From NCBI GenBank assembly GCA_944323135.1, contig CALURI010000004.1, positions 62,001-126,000 of the forward strand: DNA of 64,000 nucleotides. Direction: 5' to 3'. The stretch comes from Candidatus Gastranaerophilales bacterium (lineage in GTDB: Bacteria > Cyanobacteriota > Vampirovibrionia > Gastranaerophilales > Gastranaerophilaceae). Shown one piece after another: positions 22,207 to 64,000 of this stretch; position 1 is the stretch's first letter; each line of letters starts with the position of its first letter. The notes under the pieces were generated by a model. That model was not told where the DNA came from, did not search any database, and saw only the letters and a program-made list of their open reading frames with translations. The translations under genes and the position numbers were made by a program.

Positions 22207-23328
22207 TTATCTTATTTGAACAGGCATAATCAAACAAACATAATCTTCTTCACTATCCGGTCTGAACATTGTTGCTGAAAGCGGAGTGTTTAATCCGATT
22301 TTTACAATATCTGAATCAATATTTTTCAATGCTTCTAATACATATTTGTAATTAAAAGCAATAACAAGTTCTTCACCTGTATAGTTTATATCAATACTTT
22401 CTTCTGATTTACCTGAATCAGGAGTATCAGCTGTCAATTTTAATGTATTATGACTAAATTCAAGTTTTACGATACTTGTTTTTTCATTAACCATAATTGA
22501 TACACGTTCTAAAGCTGATGTCATTTGTGCTACATTTACCAAAGCTTCTTTTGGACTTTCCTTTGGTATTAGTTGATTATATTTCGGAAATTGTCCTTCC
22601 AACAATCTTGAAATGGTTGTAGTTTTTTCTGATTTGATTATAATTTTTGACTTTTCTGTGTATATCTTAACAGAATCTTCGTCAATAAAACCACTCATTT
22701 TTATAAATTCATTAAGTGTTTTTGACGGAATTATAAGTTGTTTAGCATGATTGTCTTTGTTATCAATACTTTCTCTTACTCTTGCAAGACGATTTCCGTC
22801 AGTTGATGCTATTTCCATTATATTTCCGGAAATATCACAAACTATACCAGATAAAAGATTGCTTGTTTCATAACTTGCGGCTGCAAATCCTGCTTGTTTA
22901 ACTGCTTTTACAAAAGGTCTGATTTCTATTTCAAAACCTTCTTCTTCACTAACAGCAATGTTTGAAAATTCCGGCGGAAATTCTGATGCGGAAATACCTA
23001 TAATATCAAATTTTGAATTTTGGCAAGTAATATTTACTATTGTTTCACTATCATTCATTTCAAATGTAATAAGTTTGTCACCTAATTTAGAAACTATTTC
23101 ATTTAATGTTTTTGAAGGCAGTGTAATCTTTCCTTCTTCTTCAACTTGAGCATCAACAAGTGCTGTGACAGTTAAATCCAAATCAGTAGCAACTAATTTT
23201 ATAGTACTTCTATCAATTGTTTCAATTAAAATATTCATCAAAACCGGTTGTAAAGCTTTGATAGAAGTGGCTCTTTCAACAATTTTTATACCGTTATACA
23301 GATCTTCTTTTTTTACAACAAATTTCAT
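22207..23328 (-). CDS. dnaN: DNA polymerase III beta subunit (sliding clamp)
   Basis: 373 aa, the usual clamp length. It tethers the replicative polymerase to DNA as a ring dimer. The protein begins MKFVVKKEDLYNGIKIVERA and contains LPSKTLNEIVSKL, SNLLSGIVCDI, STDGNRLARV and a C-terminal CLIMPVQIR, all typical. GGGGAG precedes the ATG. dnaA is not adjacent. The region immediately upstream is a probable replication origin, matching the cyanobacterial habit of placing oriC next to dnaN. Confidence 0.97.
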   Translation of the reverse strand: MKFVVKKEDLYNGIKIVERATSIKALQPVLMNILIETIDRSTIKLVATDLDLTVTALVDAQVEEEGKITLPSKTLNEIVSKLGDKLITFEMNDSETIVNITCQNSKFDIIGISASEFPPEFSNIAVSEEEGFEIEIRPFVKAVKQAGFAAASYETSNLLSGIVCDISGNIMEIASTDGNRLARVRESIDNKDNHAKQLIIPSKTLNEFIKMSGFIDEDSVKIYTEKSKIIIKSEKTTTISRLLEGQFPKYNQLIPKESPKEALVNVAQMTSALERVSIMVNEKTSIVKLEFSHNTLKLTADTPDSGKSEESIDINYTGEELVIAFNYKYVLEALKNIDSDIVKIGLNTPLSATMFRPDSEEDYVCLIMPVQIR

Positions 23329-23399: not shown

Positions 23400-23720
23400 T
23401 ATACAAATTGTAACCTTTTTTAAGTTTTGAACAATTTTTTATATATTAATTATTATATAAATTAATATAATAATATATTTAATAATAATAATAAGCTCAA
23501 ATTATTTGTAGAAAAGTTTCTGAAAGTATTAATATTATTGATTTTTTATTGTCAATAATTTTGTAGAAAATTGTTTAAGAAAAAAATATTTATTGTAGAA
23601 AACTATATTCAGAAAAAAATAATGTAGAAAACTCATGAGTTTTCTACAAAAAGAAAGGGGTTTTTCTACTATGTTTCTACAATGTTAATTATGGGGAGAC
23701 TGTTTTTTTCTTGTGGAAAA
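23400..23720. other. Probable chromosomal replication origin (oriC)
   Basis: A block of almost pure A/T (about 23425-23490) suits an unwinding element. Beside it are repeated 9-mers TGTAGAAAA at 23507-23515, 23562-23570, 23594-23602 and 23623-23631, the reverse complement at 23640-23648, a GTTTCTACA variant at 23673-23681 and TGTGGAAAA at 23712-23720. The last is the exact complement of TTTTCCACA, the cyanobacterial DnaA box; the others differ by one base. The boxes at 23623 and 23640 form a perfect 26-bp palindrome. With dnaN next door, oriC is the best explanation. Confidence 0.75.
23623..23648. repeat. 26-bp perfect palindrome of two DnaA-like boxes
   Basis: TGTAGAAAA and its complement face each other around CTCATGAG, giving an uninterrupted 26-bp palindrome inside the putative origin. 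Confidence 0.9.
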
Positions 23721-24114
23721 GATTTGTAAATTTATGCCAGCTGTTTTTGAAAAAATCACCAATTTTATCAAATTTCAATTTACCTATTAATTTCTTTAAA
23801 GCAGGAAGCCATTTTGACTTAAATTTCCAACCGCCAAAAATAATTACTCCTGTTGCAAGAGCTCCGAATAACCATTTTTTCCAGGATGGAGTTGAAGTTA
23901 AATCTTTTTTATCATCTTTATTGTATTGAAATTCATCAACTTTGGGTTGTGACAAATTTTTTCCGCTCGGAGTTTGACCTATAAACGGAGATGGTTGATT
24001 TGATAAACTGCCGACATATCTTGGATTTTGATTTGTTACAAATGATGGTGCATCAAAATCTAAAACACCGTTCATTGCCAGTAAATCTAAATTATCAGAC
24101 CAAGCAGGAGCCAT
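23689..24114 (-). CDS. Single-membrane-span hypothetical protein
   Basis: About 141 aa from ATG 24114 (MAPAWSDNLDLL), which has GGTGG upstream; a GTG at 24123 is also possible. A polar N-terminal half is followed by one membrane helix (KWLFGALATGVIIFGGWKF) and a strongly basic tail. I do not recognise it. The gene abuts the putative oriC, and its 3' end contains one DnaA-like box, so its terminal sequence may be constrained by the origin. Confidence 0.55.
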   Translation of the reverse strand: MAPAWSDNLDLLAMNGVLDFDAPSFVTNQNPRYVGSLSNQPSPFIGQTPSGKNLSQPKVDEFQYNKDDKKDLTSTPSWKKWLFGALATGVIIFGGWKFKSKWLPALKKLIGKLKFDKIGDFFKNSWHKFTNLFHKKKTVSP

Positions 24115-24193
24115 TTTTACCACCTTTTTTATTTTTAACCAAAAATTTAAAATTCTACCTTACATGTATATAAAGAGTTTTTTGTGATTAAAA

Positions 24194-57649: not shown

Positions 57650-58402
57650 TTATATATCTAATCTTCTACCGTATTTACTTCCACTTGATATATAATCATT
57701 TTTTGATTGTTGATTTACTTGTTGACTCATTCTTATTATGTCATCTAGGTTTAACACTACAAAATTAGGTTTATTACTTACAAAATCTGCTCCTGATTGC
57801 GTTATTCCTGATGATGCAACCAATATAACTTCATCTGCACCAAAATCATCTTTACAACCCCATAACGCTCTGATTGGTTCAGGCGGTACCGGATTTTTAT
57901 AGTGTTTACATTGAATTATGCCCCGATATCCTTCTTTTTCGATAATAATATCTACACCGCCATCGCCGGAGCCTTTTGTAACCGTGGCTTTATATCCATT
58001 GAGAATAAATATTTTTGCAACTTCCTGTTCAAATTGCCATCCGTCAAGAGTCCACCACCAGGATTGTTCTGCCCAATAACCGGAATTTCGTTTTAACTGG
58101 TTTGGAGAGAACTGTCTTGCATAACTATTGTTAAACAAATGATTCCAATAAACACAAAATACAATAAAACAAATTACGCAACTCCATCCAAAAACAGAAA
58201 AAGGTAAGATTTTAGTATCACCTAAATAATAGAGAAGGTAATTAAATCCCAAAACAAAACCTACAGATAAAATGCACTCCTTCCACAATCCATGCCTGTT
58301 TACTTCGCATAAAAATTTTATTATTACTGTTATAACTGCAATAATAGCTGTTATAAATGCTATTATATCTCTTGTTGTAACTGCTGTTTTTTGTCTTGCC
58401 AT
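57650..58402 (-). CDS. Membrane-anchored Mrr-type endonuclease
   Basis: 250 aa. Three or four N-terminal membrane helices (to about residue 90) precede a PD-(D/E)xK nuclease domain: GWQFEQEVAKIFILNGYKA, KGSGDGGVDIIIE, IIQCKHYKNPV and ILVASSGIT. The catalytic Asp, Gln-x-Lys and His are intact. It would cut DNA at the membrane. It is 9 bp from the upstream DUF1257-like gene, in the operon of the AAA+ ATPase. Confidence 0.85.
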   Translation of the reverse strand: MARQKTAVTTRDIIAFITAIIAVITVIIKFLCEVNRHGLWKECILSVGFVLGFNYLLYYLGDTKILPFSVFGWSCVICFIVFCVYWNHLFNNSYARQFSPNQLKRNSGYWAEQSWWWTLDGWQFEQEVAKIFILNGYKATVTKGSGDGGVDIIIEKEGYRGIIQCKHYKNPVPPEPIRALWGCKDDFGADEVILVASSGITQSGADFVSNKPNFVVLNLDDIIRMSQQVNQQSKNDYISSGSKYGRRLDI

Positions 58403-58411
58403 GACACTCCT

Positions 58412-58933
58412 TTAAACGCTTATTGTTATAACGATTGAATTATCTTCCAGTACTTCTTCTTGTTCAATTTTCATAGCTTTATTCATTGAAACTTTTTCTT
58501 TTATATTGTTACACACCTTTTGTTGCACCTGACGTTCATACTCAGCACCTAATTTGTTATATAAATTTTGCACCGGAGCAAGATTTCCATCTCCTACAAT
58601 TCTAAATTCGTAATTGCCGTTCTTTGTTTTAGCAATAGTAATATCGCTGTTACCAGCCCGACAGGTAAAACGGCTATTGTTCTCAGTAAAAGGTATGTTA
58701 GTCTTTTTTAAAGATATCCGTAAAAGTTCTTTATCTGCTATTTTAGTTTGTAATGTTTGCCGTTGTTTAGGTTCTGCTTTCTTTACCGTTTTACCAGTAG
58801 AAGATTGCCCTCTTAATCGTTTTTGTCTGTAATGTTCCCTTACATCTGCTTCTGTCCATAATATCTGGTCTCCCCTTCCAGTAAGAACCCAGAACAAAGT
58901 TTCTAACGGTGATAACTCTATCAATACCGACAT
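58412..58933 (-). CDS. DUF1257 (Ycf35-like) protein with N-terminal extension
   Basis: 173 aa. The C-terminal 115 residues have the Ycf35/DUF1257 layout: TKIADKELLRISLKKTNIPF at the start, a central DITIAKTKNGNYEFRIVGDG, then KLGAEYERQVQQKVCNNIKE and an acidic ending (EEVLEDNSIVITISV). The first 60 residues (ELSPLETLFWVLTGRGDQIL, then Lys-rich linker) are an extra module missing from the other copy at 60175. Ycf35 proteins are conserved in cyanobacteria and some plastids; their function is not established. Confidence 0.7.
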   Translation of the reverse strand: MSVLIELSPLETLFWVLTGRGDQILWTEADVREHYRQKRLRGQSSTGKTVKKAEPKQRQTLQTKIADKELLRISLKKTNIPFTENNSRFTCRAGNSDITIAKTKNGNYEFRIVGDGNLAPVQNLYNKLGAEYERQVQQKVCNNIKEKVSMNKAMKIEQEEVLEDNSIVITISV

Positions 58934-58954
58934 GTTTATCCTCCTATTATTTTT

Positions 58955-60136
58955 CTACCAATCAATTTTCCTACCCATTTTGTTTTTAGGTTTATGCGGA
59001 AAAATTATTTTATCTTGTATCTCTATCATCTGGTGTGGCTGAAGTCCGAAGGCTTCTGCGAAAGTATCAATCTCATAATAAACTTTTCCGTTATCTCTAT
59101 CTGAAATAAATTTTTTTGCTTTCTTAGAATCAAACCCTTCGAGAGTTAATAAATCCTCAAATAAACAGTTCTCTAGTTCTATTTTGCGATTTTTTAAATA
59201 CGGCTGCTTAGTTGTATTCTTTTTAGTTTTATGTTTAGTTCCGCTGTCTGCCGAATAATTATAATTAGTTTGCTCATTAACAGATGCTTTTAAAGCTTCT
59301 TCCTTTTGCTTTTCAAAAGCTTTTTGACATTCTTCTATTTTATTTTGAACTTCTGCATATTTATCATTTTCAGTTGTAATTTCTTTGTAGTATTTAATTG
59401 CTTGCACAAAGTTGTTTAATTTAGTATATTCTTCAGCAAGTTTATAATTATACATATCTAATTTCTCTATAGTACCTGGATTTTTTTCAGTTTTTTTAAT
59501 GGCATTTTTTATATCATCAATAGCTAGTTCATTTTTATTTATAGTGGAGTATACTATGGCTCTTTTATAATAAATATCCGGAAGTTCTTTAATATCAATT
59601 ATTTTTTGATTCATAATTAAATAAGTATAAAAGAATAAAGCATCATAGAAATTATTCTTTTCAAAACTGTTTTGAGCAAATTGTTTTAAGTCTTCATATT
59701 CTATATAGGGTAAAATATTTTTAACTTTCTGGAAATATTCTTGTGTAAGATGAGAGGCTTTTTTATTATAAATTTTTGCTACGATAAAATTAAGTTCTAA
59801 AAATTCCTTATCTGAGCCATTATATTTGATATTTTGTTCAATACGATTCTTTAAGTCTTCAATATCTTCTAATGTTCCTTCTTGCTTACAGTCTGACAGT
59901 AGCCTATCCAGGATTACTTCAAGATTTTCTCGCTCAATATCTACTCCTGTTTTTCGTTTTTCACTATCGTTTTGTAACTGTTTTTCTGAATTATTTTCAG
60001 AAGTAAAAGATACCATTTTAAAGAGAAGATACATAACAGCATCTATAATATATAAACAAAACCAAATATACATTATAATTGCCAGAATTTTTAATAATAT
60101 ATTTCGTATTGTTTGTAGTTGTTTCCAGATAATCAT
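58955..60136 (-). CDS. Membrane-anchored TPR/helix-hairpin-helix protein (copy 2)
   Basis: 393 aa. An N-terminal membrane segment (about residues 12-42) is followed by an acidic coiled coil, TPR-like repeats (YALAEEYTKLNNFVQAIKYY-like unit near 250) and a C-terminal domain ENCLFEDLLTLEGFDSKKAK resembling ComEA-type helix-hairpin-helix. The first 50 and last 75 residues are nearly identical to the protein at 60584, while the middle differs. It is 21 bp upstream of a DUF1257-like gene. Confidence 0.65.
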   Translation of the reverse strand: MIIWKQLQTIRNILLKILAIIMYIWFCLYIIDAVMYLLFKMVSFTSENNSEKQLQNDSEKRKTGVDIERENLEVILDRLLSDCKQEGTLEDIEDLKNRIEQNIKYNGSDKEFLELNFIVAKIYNKKASHLTQEYFQKVKNILPYIEYEDLKQFAQNSFEKNNFYDALFFYTYLIMNQKIIDIKELPDIYYKRAIVYSTINKNELAIDDIKNAIKKTEKNPGTIEKLDMYNYKLAEEYTKLNNFVQAIKYYKEITTENDKYAEVQNKIEECQKAFEKQKEEALKASVNEQTNYNYSADSGTKHKTKKNTTKQPYLKNRKIELENCLFEDLLTLEGFDSKKAKKFISDRDNGKVYYEIDTFAEAFGLQPHQMIEIQDKIIFPHKPKNKMGRKIDW

Positions 60137-60174
60137 TTTATTTCCTTATAATTTACAATTTATTATCAAAATTT

Positions 60175-60555
60175 TTACACCTTTATTGTTAAAAGTACCG
60201 ATTTATCCTCTAAAATTTGTTCTTGTTCTATCTCCATTGCTTTATTCAAGGAAATTTGTTTTTTTATGTTTTCAAGAACCTGTTTTTGTAATTCTTGTTG
60301 TGATAATTTATTATAATGAGTTGTTATTTTTTCACGAAACTCTATAATATCGTCTTTCCAATCATCATAACCTTTTGTTTGTATTTCATATTCACCATCT
60401 TTGTTTTTCTTAAAATGGAGGTCATAGAAACTAATAGAACAAACCAATTCTCCTTTTTGTTCTCTATAGGACACATTTGCTTTTTTTAAAGCTTTTTTAA
60501 GGATTTCTTTATCTCTAAATTTTGTTTTGTATTTTAAATGCACATAAATTGACAT
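60175..60555 (-). CDS. DUF1257 (Ycf35-like) protein
   Basis: 126 aa, a stand-alone DUF1257-like domain: KYKTKFRDKEILKKALKKAN, then HFKKNKDGEYEIQTKGYDDW, TTHYNKLSQQELQKQVLENI and the ending EQEQILEDKSVLLTIKV. It is a paralogue of the C-terminal part of the protein at 58412 (shared NIKxxxSLNKAMxIEQE tail). It lies 28 bp behind the hairpin-protein gene at 60584. Confidence 0.72.
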   Translation of the reverse strand: MSIYVHLKYKTKFRDKEILKKALKKANVSYREQKGELVCSISFYDLHFKKNKDGEYEIQTKGYDDWKDDIIEFREKITTHYNKLSQQELQKQVLENIKKQISLNKAMEIEQEQILEDKSVLLTIKV

Positions 60556-60583
60556 AAGGTCTCCTTATACATACAAATTTAGA

Positions 60584-61579
60584 CTACCAATCAATTTTTC
60601 TACCGATTTTATTTATCGGCTTAGGAGGAAAAATTATTCTGTCTTGTACCTCTATCATCTGGTGTGGCTGAAGTCCAAAGGCTTCTACAAAAGTTTCTAA
60701 GTCATAATAAATTTTTCCATTCATTCTTTCTTTTAAAAATTTTGTTGCTTTACTCAAATCAAAACCGTCAATAGTTAATAAATCTTCCACAGTACAATTT
60801 TGTAGATTAATTTTTTTACTACTTGATTTCGGAGCATTTTTTATTTTCTGATTTGTTTGTTTTGCTAGTTGTTCATTTTCAAGTTTTTGTTGTAGTTTCA
60901 AAATGCTATCATTAATCAGACCCTGTCCAATTAGTTTATTAATATCGCGAAGTGCAATATTATAATATCCAAGCCCATTAAGCCACAAAGCATATTCATA
61001 ATGACATTTGCAAAATTCGTCTTTAGAATAATGACCTCTGTCATAATAAAGTCCTATCTTTTTAGAAGCAAATTCTTTTTTATAGATTTCTGTTTTTGTA
61101 AAAGCCCCAAAATACTTTCTTTTCATCAAGAGAAAATCAGGGTTGTTAGGATTTTCTCTTATAAGACAGGTCAGCCGCAAATCAAATCCATGTAATTCTT
61201 TTTTATCTAATTTGGCACCAAGAAATTTTTCTCTTATTGTACTAATTTCTCGATTTATTTCTTCATTATCCATCGGGATAAAGTCTTTTAACTTATCAAT
61301 AGCAACGCTGTATTTACCTAAATCCATAAATGTATTTACTTCATCAAGTAATTTTCTATTTGCATCAAGTGCATTCTCCATTTTTTTTAATTGTTCTTCA
61401 GGTATTGGTGTATCTTTCTCTTGTTTTTCTTGATTATTTTCAGAAGTAAAGGATACCATTTTAAATAGAAGATACATAACAGCATCTATAATATATAACC
61501 CAAGCCAAATGTATAGTATAATTGCCAAGATTTTTAGTAATATATTTGGTATTGTTTGTAGTTTTTTCCAAATAATCAT
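60584..61579 (-). CDS. Membrane-anchored helix-hairpin-helix protein (copy 1)
   Basis: 331 aa. An N-terminal membrane segment (WLGLYIIDAVMYLLFKMVSF, about residues 24-45) precedes a helical middle with TPR-like character and a C-terminal ComEA-like helix-hairpin-helix domain (NLQNCTVEDLLTIDGFDLSK), then FGLQPHQMIEVQDRIIFPPK and a basic GRKIDW end. The hairpin domain could bind DNA or protein. Paralogue of the protein at 58955. Confidence 0.65.
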   Translation of the reverse strand: MIIWKKLQTIPNILLKILAIILYIWLGLYIIDAVMYLLFKMVSFTSENNQEKQEKDTPIPEEQLKKMENALDANRKLLDEVNTFMDLGKYSVAIDKLKDFIPMDNEEINREISTIREKFLGAKLDKKELHGFDLRLTCLIRENPNNPDFLLMKRKYFGAFTKTEIYKKEFASKKIGLYYDRGHYSKDEFCKCHYEYALWLNGLGYYNIALRDINKLIGQGLINDSILKLQQKLENEQLAKQTNQKIKNAPKSSSKKINLQNCTVEDLLTIDGFDLSKATKFLKERMNGKIYYDLETFVEAFGLQPHQMIEVQDRIIFPPKPINKIGRKIDW

Positions 61580-61601
61580 TTTTACACCTTACAAATCTTA
61601 C

Positions 61602-63299
61602 TTAAAATTCAATAGTTCTGCCGCCTCTGGCACGTTTGACAGTTTCTGTTGATTTCTTTTCTTTCTTTTTCTTTTCAATTTGTTCCTGCGTTTCTTCAGG
61701 CACATAGTTATAACTTTCATCATGAGCTGTTGCCGCTACGGCTCTTTCGTTTGCCCAGTCTCTTATTGCAAGAATTTGTTCTGCCTGGGTAGTTGAAAGC
61801 GGAACTGTATTTTTTATAACCTTATACAAATCATCTTCCTCTAATGTTCTATTTTCAGAAAAAGCTTCAAATAAAGCGGCTATTACAACCTGTTCTATTT
61901 CCGCTCCTACAAATCCTTCTGTTAAATCTGCCAGTTTATTTAGTAAGGTATCCGTAATTTTAAAATCTTTGGAAAGACTTCCATTTAACCTTTTTTCAAG
62001 ATGAAGTTTAAAAATAACCTTACGTTCAGTTTTTGTCGGTAAATCGACAAAAAATATTTCATCAAATCGCCCTTTTCTAAGCATTTCAGATGGTAATGCA
62101 TGAATATTGTTTGCGGTTGCAATTACAAATACAGGTTTTGTCTTTTCTGACATCCAGGTAAGAAAAGTTCCAAAAACTCTTGTTGAAGTTCCCCCGTCCA
62201 TTTCACCGCCGGCATTTCCAAAACCTTTTTCAATTTCATCAATCCAGAGAATAGATGGGGAAACGGCTTCTGCTGTTTGGATTGCTTTTCTCATGTTTTC
62301 TTCAGAACTGCCCACTAATCCTGAAAATATTTTGCCGACATCAAGCCTCAGTAAAGGCAACTGCCACAATGCACTCATTGCTTTTGCTGTCAAACTCTTA
62401 CCGCAACCCGGAACCCCTGTTATCAAAATACCCTTTGGTGATGGTAAGTTATAATCTTTTTGAGCTTTTCCAAGCCAAGAATTATTTCTTTTTACAAGCC
62501 ATTTTTTTAAATTCTCAAGTCCCCCAACATCATCCATATTAAAATTAGACTTAATAAACTCTAAAATTCCGGTCTTTTTAATTACCTGGCATTTTTCATC
62601 AAGTATTACATCCAGTTCTTTTACCGTTAATTGTCCTTTTGATACCATTGCTCTTGCAAATGCGTTTTCTGCTTCTTGCAAGGTTAACCCCTGGGCTGCT
62701 TTACAAAGAATTTCTTTTTCATCTTCTTTTAAATCAATCAAAATCCCTGAATTTTCATTCATTTCTATCATTTCATTAAGCAATGATTTAATTTCATCAA
62801 GTGTAGGCAGGTCAAAATCAACAACAGTAATATCTTTTTGCAATTCCAACGGTAAAACTAAAGAAGGGGCTATAATTACAACATTTTTTGATACAGAGGC
62901 ATTCTTTAAAGAACCTGCAACATCTCTGATTTTTCTGATTAAGTTGTAATCTGCATTTCTTCCATTGACACCGAGCAAAGGATGAATATCCTTCAGAATA
63001 AGAATAGCAGGGTTGTTATAATTATCAATAAAATTCAGTGCATCAATAGGCTGATTCCCGTTATTAACACTTTCCTGACCGTCTTTAAGGTTTTTCTTTA
63101 ACCCCTCTGTGGAACTCCAGATGAAAACATCTCGTTTTGTTCTGATTGTTTTAACATCGTTTGCAATTTTAGTTATCAAATCAACAATACGAACTTCCTC
63201 CCAGGTTGGGATGTATATAAAAGAAAATCTTGCTTTAAAAAGGTTTGTTAAATGCTGTTCTGTTTTCTTTAATCCTTCTAATGTCATTGCTTTTGCCAT
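61602..63299 (-). CDS. Ycf46-like AAA+ ATPase
   Basis: 565 aa, matching Ycf46 in length and layout. The N-terminal third is the inactive-looking domain (FKARFSFIYIPTWEEVRIVD, ILKDIHPLL, IIAPSLVLPLELQKDITVVD); the linker LDVILDEKCQVIKKTGILEF leads to VGGLENLKKWLVKRNNSW and an intact AAA+ module: Walker A GVPGCGKSLTAK near residue 295, Walker B ILWIDEIEKGF near 353, and MLRKGRFDEIFFVD with the Arg finger and sensor. It ends DWANERAVAATAHDESYNY. Its ribosome-binding site TGAGG lies inside the end of the radical SAM gene. Confidence 0.9.
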   Translation of the reverse strand: MAKAMTLEGLKKTEQHLTNLFKARFSFIYIPTWEEVRIVDLITKIANDVKTIRTKRDVFIWSSTEGLKKNLKDGQESVNNGNQPIDALNFIDNYNNPAILILKDIHPLLGVNGRNADYNLIRKIRDVAGSLKNASVSKNVVIIAPSLVLPLELQKDITVVDFDLPTLDEIKSLLNEMIEMNENSGILIDLKEDEKEILCKAAQGLTLQEAENAFARAMVSKGQLTVKELDVILDEKCQVIKKTGILEFIKSNFNMDDVGGLENLKKWLVKRNNSWLGKAQKDYNLPSPKGILITGVPGCGKSLTAKAMSALWQLPLLRLDVGKIFSGLVGSSEENMRKAIQTAEAVSPSILWIDEIEKGFGNAGGEMDGGTSTRVFGTFLTWMSEKTKPVFVIATANNIHALPSEMLRKGRFDEIFFVDLPTKTERKVIFKLHLEKRLNGSLSKDFKITDTLLNKLADLTEGFVGAEIEQVVIAALFEAFSENRTLEEDDLYKVIKNTVPLSTTQAEQILAIRDWANERAVAATAHDESYNYVPEETQEQIEKKKKEKKSTETVKRARGGRTIEF

Positions 63300-63301
63300 A
63301 T

Positions 63302-63898
63302 CTACCTCATAGTTTTTAAAACTTCTTTAAAATTCCCCATACCGTTAAGAGAAATTTTATTGTTCTTATCTATTCTTACTTCAATCTTGTTTTTGTACTT
63401 ACTGATAATGCTTTCATCATATCTATCAGTGAAAAAATAATAATTCTGGTTGCTTGACCCTATCCATGGACGGCTAAAATCTTGTTTGTCTTCTTCATAC
63501 CTACCGTCAATCAGAATATCAACGTATCTTATTAGTTCTTGAAAATCTTGCCTGTTTTTAAGGGCTGAATATTCATACCCTGTAAACACCAAAACAGACA
63601 GTCCGAAAGTCTGAACTGTCTTTGATATTTCCGTTACTGCTTCTATTTGTTCCAGTGGTTCTCCGCCAAGAAAGGTTATACCCTCTATTTTGTCCTTATA
63701 TGATGTTATCAAGTCAATTAATTCTTCTACCTTGTAAATAGTACCGCCATCTTTATTCCACATTGCAGAGTTTGCACAGCCTTTACAATGCAGCGAACAC
63801 CCTTGAACCCAGATACTAAATCTTTTTCCGGGTCCTTCTACTGTGGTTATAGGGATGTATGAATTAATCCTAATGTCCACTTTGTTGATATCCCTCAT
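63302..63898 (-). CDS. 4Fe-4S single-cluster radical SAM protein (NrdG/PflA-like)
   Basis: About 198 aa from ATG 63898. FSIWVQGCSLHCKGCAN holds the CxxxCxxC that binds a 4Fe-4S cluster and SAM, GITFLGGEPLEQIEAV is the GGE motif, and VLVFTGYEY and DILIDGRYEEDKQD follow, as in radical SAM activases. It is small, with no SPASM or B12 domain. It might install a glycyl radical or modify a partner peptide. It overlaps the DUF2997-like gene and is 2 bp from the AAA+ gene. An upstream frame from 63967 is unlikely. Confidence 0.85.
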   Translation of the reverse strand: MRDINKVDIRINSYIPITTVEGPGKRFSIWVQGCSLHCKGCANSAMWNKDGGTIYKVEELIDLITSYKDKIEGITFLGGEPLEQIEAVTEISKTVQTFGLSVLVFTGYEYSALKNRQDFQELIRYVDILIDGRYEEDKQDFSRPWIGSSNQNYYFFTDRYDESIISKYKNKIEVRIDKNNKISLNGMGNFKEVLKTMR

Positions 63899-64000
63899 TG
63901 TAAGTGTCGTTATGTACTTCCTGCTGATGGTATTCTTCCGTAAATTCAGAATGAACGACCTTTGCACCTGTCAGATTTTCAATATCTTTAATGTAGCCAA
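63870..64000 (-). CDS. DUF2997-like small protein (5' part cut by window edge)
   Basis: Only the last 43 codons are visible, ending at TAG 63870. The sequence YIKDIENLTGAKVVHSEFTE matches the C-terminus of DUF2997 proteins, which are small companions of Ycf46/DUF1257 loci. The frame overlaps the radical SAM start by 29 bp, implying coupled translation. The assignment rests on a short fragment. Confidence 0.5.
   Translation of the reverse strand, partial: GYIKDIENLTGAKVVHSEFTEEYHQQEVHNDTYNEGYQQSGH

What the first reader, a model, noticed from the sequence alone, without database searches (positions are those of the whole stretch)
23400..23720. Probable chromosomal origin with a cyanobacterial-type DnaA box variant next to dnaN
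Four direct TGTAGAAAA 9-mers, one inverted copy, one GTTTCTACA variant and one TGTGGAAAA lie within 220 bp beside an AT-only block and immediately upstream of dnaN. TTTTCCACA is the DnaA box known from cyanobacteria; here the majority form is TTTTCTACA, a one-base change that may be the lineage's own consensus. The core pair forms a 26-bp palindrome.
Basis: partly seen in the sequence, partly recalled or inferred. Interest (0 to 1): 0.75.

Follow-up and report, generated by a model that had tools for sequence, protein, structure and literature searches.

The report
Replication origin with rewired DnaA boxes
This is almost certainly where chromosome copying starts in a gut-dwelling, non-photosynthetic relative of cyanobacteria, and its whole class seems to have changed both the DNA 'password' read by the start protein DnaA and an amino acid that reads it.

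Summary
Confirmed, and wider than reported. The region has full origin anatomy: DnaA boxes, GC patch, DnaA-trio array, a 62-bp A/T-only block, dnaN. Strand skew flips there in the window's own contig and in five relatives. The layout is conserved in nearly all sampled Gastranaerophilales; in four genomes it persists although dnaN lies 2-6 kb away. TTTTCTACA is indeed the lineage consensus: at box position 6, 287 T against 7 C, versus 0 T and 37 C in Cyanobacteriia. The TGTGGAAAA copy lies in a predicted gene, is not conserved, and is probably not a box. dnaA is unlinked and has no box cluster. New point: across the surrounding class the DnaA box has lost the first C of its near-universal CAC core, and E. 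coli Asp433, a base-contacting residue of DnaA's recognition helix, is replaced (Lys in most families); Cyanobacteriia keep both. I infer that initiator and origin changed together. This is covariation, effectively one evolutionary event; no binding was measured. New variant of a known kind.

The parts
22207..23328 (-). dnaN, DNA polymerase III beta clamp, 373 aa
   Evidence: TIGR00663 289 bits, cut-off 137.65; orthologues in 50 of 58 relatives
23433..23494 (.). 62-bp A/T-only block, putative DNA unwinding element
   Evidence: sequence; AT tract at the same place in relatives
23480..23494 (-). DnaA-trio array TTATTATTATTATTA (five YTR triplets on the - strand)
   Evidence: CTACTACTACTA at this place in other families; consensus in PMC8235120
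23495..23498 (-). GC patch GAGC between last box and trio array
23507..23515 (-). DUE-proximal DnaA box TTTTCTACA
   Evidence: kept in relatives
23550..23558 (-). degenerate DnaA box TTATTGACA
   Evidence: aligns with TTTTCTACA or TTATCTACA in relatives
23562..23570 (-). DnaA box TTTTCTACA
23594..23602 (-). DnaA box TTTTCTACA
23623..23648 (.). 26-bp perfect palindrome of two DnaA boxes (23623-23631 reads TTTTCTACA on -, 23640-23648 on +)
   Evidence: spacing kept in other genera; similar pair with TTTTCCACA in cyanobacteria
23662..23670 (+). near-consensus DnaA box TTTTCTACT
   Evidence: full box at this aligned place in many relatives
23673..23681 (+). variant DnaA box GTTTCTACA
23712..23720 (-). 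TTTTCCACA inside a predicted coding region; probably not part of the origin
   Evidence: inside ORF 23689-24123; not kept in relatives
23689..24123 (-). predicted 144-aa ORF on the other side of the origin, no known family

Best explanation
The region 23433-23681 is the chromosomal replication origin (oriC) of a Gastranaerophilales bacterium (class Vampirovibrionia in GTDB, from general knowledge). DnaA, encoded on another contig, binds the TTTTCTACA boxes through domain IV. From the DUE-proximal box (23507-23515) an ATP-DnaA filament reaches across the GC patch onto one strand of the trio array (23480-23494), opens the A/T-only block and lets helicase load, as in the basal unwinding system of Bacillus subtilis. 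The box differs from the usual TTWTNCACA at position 6 (C to T); DnaA in this class has lost the Asp (E. coli D433) at the start of the recognition helix, which here is Lys425, and this is proposed as the cause. Shown: sequence anatomy, conservation, skew switch, covariation. Inferred: DnaA binding, unwinding, and that residue 433 is what reads position 6 (confidence in that last step about 0.6).
For: Unique dense cluster. Skew sign change at the site in the own contig and five relatives. At least two boxes beside dnaN in 26 of 27 sampled genomes of the genus and in most others of the order. Trio, GC patch and spacing conserved. In G021, G033, G129 and G083 the whole element persists 2-6 kb from dnaN. 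In a GTDB scan with the palindrome, 64 clustered loci were found, 41 with dnaN within 700 bp; 52 lone matches had no dnaN nearby. Position 6 of TTWTNNACA boxes: Cyanobacteriia C 37, others 0; Gastranaerophilales T 287, A 74, C 7, G 8; f8 T 16, C 1; f38 A 14, C 2; f39 A 15, T 10, C 1. DnaA 433: Asp in all Cyanobacteriia and outgroups aligned; Lys in nearly all Gastranaerophilales; Lys, Arg, Gln, Thr or Gly in the other class families. It is the only base-contacting residue changed throughout the order relative to Cyanobacteriia. Trio-capturing residues N187, I190, I193, R202, E228 and E183 (B. subtilis numbering) are kept (PMC10721633).
Against: No binding, unwinding or marker-frequency data. 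The own contig's skew is weak on the right and reversed at 120-127 kb; with the whole contig the best single changepoint is at 66 kb with the origin close behind. The residue/box covariation is effectively one deep event, so it is not replicated evidence. Lys433 goes with T6 in some families and A6 in others, so there is no simple one-residue code. Family f9 (Thr433) has a skew switch and a trio but no clear box. The contact of D433 with position 6 was not verified on a structure here.
Confidence: 0.9

Rival explanations
1. The repeats are operator sites of a regulator of dnaN (or DnaA acting only as such a regulator), and replication starts elsewhere.
For: They lie directly upstream of dnaN in most genomes, and DnaA boxes can regulate genes (general knowledge).
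Against: The full element with trio and AT block persists where dnaN lies 2-6 kb away; skew flips there; no other cluster in the genome.
Confidence: 0.04
2. It is the origin, but the box change is AT-mutational drift tolerated by a DnaA that still prefers CAC; the D433 replacement is unrelated.
For: The genomes are AT-rich (window about 29% G+C), and C to T is the expected drift; the two changes coincide on one branch only.
Against: T6 is kept with great uniformity (287 T to 7 C) while the C at positions 5 and 8 and the exact palindrome are kept in the same boxes; family f8 has T6 with large genomes; D433 is a named base-contacting residue (PMC5043019, PMC7561715).
Confidence: 0.3
3. The cluster is the origin of an integrated mobile element or a secondary origin, not the chromosomal one.
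For: None found; considered because dnaA is unlinked.
Against: One copy per genome, order-wide vertical conservation next to dnaN and chromosome-scale skew switch.
Confidence: 0.01

Closest known systems
Cyanobacterial oriC next to dnaN (Synechococcus PCC 7942, Anabaena PCC 7120, Cyanothece ATCC 51142; PMC4674748)
   Same: Beside dnaN, direct and inverted 9-mer boxes, a palindromic pair, trio-like array and AT stretch
   Different: Box is TTTTCTACA, not TTTTCCACA; palindrome spacer 8 rather than 9-10; DnaA has Lys instead of Asp at the 433 position
Basal unwinding system (BUS) of Bacillus subtilis oriC (PMC6669920, PMC10721633)
   Same: DnaA box, GC patch, DnaA-trio array and AT-rich DUE in that order; trio-capturing DnaA residues kept
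   Different: Here the trios are all of the A-A type without G, the box-to-trio spacing is 12 nt after the last clear box, and dnaA is not adjacent
Epsilonproteobacterial origins with the lineage-specific box core TTCAC (PMC5043019)
   Same: A lineage-wide change of the DnaA box with changes in helix 5 of DnaA domain IV
   Different: There position 5 changed and CAC plus the Asp-His pair were kept; here position 6 (first C of CAC) and Asp433 changed

Membership tests
Bacterial chromosomal oriC (DnaA-dependent) | Dense cluster of DnaA boxes | tested here: met
   unique cluster of at least six 9-mers in 214 bp
Bacterial chromosomal oriC (DnaA-dependent) | Switch of strand compositional skew at the site | tested here: met
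   clean in G045, G006, G018, G009 and G025; weaker in the own contig
Bacterial chromosomal oriC (DnaA-dependent) | AT-rich unwinding element next to the boxes | tested here: met
   62-bp A/T-only block 23433-23494
Bacterial chromosomal oriC (DnaA-dependent) | Binding by DnaA and initiation of replication here | not testable with these tools
   needs biochemistry or marker frequency
Basal unwinding system (BUS) | DnaA box, GC patch and at least four DnaA-trios in order | tested here: met
Basal unwinding system (BUS) | Trio-capturing residues in DnaA domain III | tested here: met
   E183, N187, I190, I193, R202, E228 conserved
Cyanobacterial-type oriC | Location beside dnaN | tested here: met
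Cyanobacterial-type oriC | Box TTTTCCACA | tested here: not met
   TTTTCTACA throughout the order
Canonical DnaA box TTWTNCACA | CAC core at positions 6-8 | tested here: not met
   TAC; C at position 6 in 7 of 376 order boxes
Canonical DnaA domain IV | Asp-His pair (E. coli 433-434) at the start of the recognition helix | tested here: not met
   Lys425-His426 here; His kept, Asp lost

The most novel reading that the evidence does not exclude
The non-photosynthetic sister class of Cyanobacteriia (Vampirovibrionia) lost the near-universal Asp433 of DnaA's recognition helix and rewrote its origin boxes from a CAC core to TAC or AAC, family by family: a natural change of specificity in an essential replication initiator and its sites.
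Probability: 0.6. Interest if true: 0.72.

Novelty: new variant of a known kind. Interest (0 to 1): 0.6.

Why it matters
No origin had been described for this group of gut and environmental bacteria in the open papers I could search. Tools that look for TTWTNCACA would miss or misplace it. Knowing the origin allows growth-rate estimates from metagenome coverage. The apparent paired change in initiator and binding site makes a concrete question testable: how an essential protein-DNA pair can change its recognition without losing replication.

Tried and rejected
Raw GC skew in the own contig and in G006 is noisy; third-codon-position skew was used instead. A first box count on dnaN-upstream regions read - strand loci the wrong way round and was redone. 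TGTGGAAAA at 23712 rejected as a functional box. An alternative origin near dnaA rejected (no cluster). A box for family f9 was sought by repeated 9-mers without a clear result. G034 (Asn433): no box pair of the pattern tried anywhere; its origin was not located. The Fujikawa 2003 structure paper is not held, so the D433-base contact could not be checked. Structure prediction was not run: without DNA it would not address specificity.

Full report
OBSERVATION. The boxes are present at the stated coordinates. In the 1.95-Mb genome the 9-mer TGTRGAAAA is not over-abundant (97 sites against 165 for a reversed control), yet six lie within 214 bp, about 4e-11 by chance over the genome, and there is no second cluster. 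The 26-bp palindrome is exact. The TGTGGAAAA copy lies in a predicted reading frame and is not conserved, so it is probably coincidence. Weaker boxes at 23662 and 23550 align with full boxes in relatives.

IS IT THE ORIGIN. dnaN is confirmed (TIGR00663). dnaA is at C7:13536-14912, unlinked and without a box cluster. Third-codon-position skew on the + strand is about -0.20 left of the site and +0.08 right of it up to 119 kb; the best changepoint falls between the midpoints of dnaN and the next gene. A block at 120-127 kb is reversed, and with it included the changepoint is less sharp, with 66 kb scoring slightly better. In relatives with long contigs the switch is clear: G045 (-0.23 to +0.22 across 260 kb), G006 (-0.24 to +0.19 at 312 kb), G018, and more weakly G009 and G025. 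In G025 the likelihood is nearly flat between 48 and 56 kb, which includes the origin.

ANATOMY. An alignment of dnaN-upstream regions of the genus shows a fixed order: inverted box, palindrome GTAGAAAAyTCATGAGTTTTCTACA, two or three direct boxes, last box TTTTCTACA, 12 nt mostly ending in AGC, TTATTATTAYTATTA, long AT tract, dnaN. The trinucleotide array fits the DnaA-trio consensus (5'-YTR-3' on this strand; PMC8235120), and in other families of the order it reads CTACTACTACTA. This is the box / GC / trio arrangement of the B. subtilis basal unwinding system (PMC6669920, PMC10721633). The trios of this genome contain no G; a B. subtilis origin with all trios of that A-A kind works, with a defect in growth and initiation (PMC10721633). 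The DnaA residues that capture trio bases are kept. In G021, G033, G129 and G083 the entire element sits 2-6 kb from dnaN, so it is not simply a dnaN control region.

WHOSE ORIGIN. Using the palindrome as pattern, 64 loci have four or more boxes, 41 of them with dnaN within 700 bp; most carry Gastranaerophilales, Melainabacteria or unnamed labels, and a few other labels look like misassigned MAGs. The 52 loci with fewer boxes have no dnaN nearby and look like chance or unrelated repeats. The class name Vampirovibrionia is from general knowledge of GTDB, not from a tool.

THE BOX CHANGE. Position 6 of TTWTNNACA boxes near dnaN (or, for three cyanobacteria, at their palindromic cluster): Cyanobacteriia 37 C and nothing else; Gastranaerophilales T 287, A 74, C 7, G 8; class families f8 T 16, f38 A 14, f39 A 15 and T 10, f41 T 4, f43 A 4 and G 4, with C 0-2 in each; the dinucleotide-shuffle expectation is far lower for the dominant letters. 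The published cyanobacterial box is TTTTCCACA beside dnaN (PMC4674748). The general consensus is TTWTNCACA, and in epsilonproteobacteria the TTCAC core at positions 4-8 is strict (PMC5043019). Loss of the C at position 6 is therefore unusual.

THE INITIATOR CHANGE. Base-specific contacts in domain IV are made at E. coli residues 399, 423, 432-435 and 438-439 (PMC5043019, citing Fujikawa 2003 and others; PMC7561715 names D433 and H434). Across the order, residue 433 is Lys nearly everywhere (Arg in G033, Asn in G034). Cyanobacteriia and the outgroups sampled in the phylum all have Asp. The other class families have Lys (f8, f38, f39, f41, part of f42), Arg (f43 and one f8 genome), Gln (part of f42), Thr (f9) or Gly (f40). 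R399 and H434 are kept except in f40 and single genomes. P423 is replaced in f1 but kept in most other families of the order and in f8, which have the same T6 boxes, so it is not the cause. Inference from chemistry: Asp can accept a hydrogen bond from cytosine, whereas Lys can donate one to thymine O4 on either strand, which would fit T6 and A6. This was not checked on a structure.

LIMITS. All evidence is comparative. The residue and box changes coincide on one deep branch, so causality is not proven. Family f9 shows a skew switch at dnaN (G148) and a trio in several members but no recognisable box, and f40 shows neither boxes nor the contact residues. Literature was searched only in open PMC papers; none of those listed described an origin in this group.

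Noticed in passing
L427-L431 (family f40: G170, G189, G174, G178, G182): DnaA domain IV has lost R399 and H434 as well as D433 (motif GRGNSS/GRGNSA) and no boxes are seen upstream of dnaN; DnaA there may no longer read boxes in the usual way.
   Followed up: partly
L383-L391 (family f9: G148, G120, G139 and others): Trio array in several members and, in G148, a skew switch at dnaN, but no recognisable DnaA box; DnaA has Thr at the 433 position.
   Followed up: partly
L206 (G021), L208 (G033), L207 (G129), L209 (G083): The complete origin element is separated from dnaN by 2-6 kb, so dnaN adjacency was broken in some genomes while the origin was kept.
   Followed up: yes
window 58000-64000 (C4 120-127 kb): Strand skew is opposite to the surrounding arm, as if a block had been inverted or inserted.
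   Followed up: no
L253, L264, L284, L322, L338, L358 (Stenotrophomonas sp. ISL-67) and L295, L324, L334, L351 (S. rhizophila): The palindrome pattern occurs many times as lone copies in Stenotrophomonas genomes, probably an unrelated dispersed palindromic repeat.
   Followed up: no
L247, L312 (labelled Heliobacteriaceae), L327 (labelled Fusobacterium): These MAG contigs carry a Gastranaerophilales-like dnaN (73-78% identity) and origin and look misnamed.
   Followed up: no
L051 (G023:C19), G003:C71, G028:C5: A second, diverged dnaN copy exists in a few genomes of the genus (20-56% identity).
   Followed up: no
window 1-64000: No tRNA or tmRNA gene was found in the whole window.
   Followed up: no
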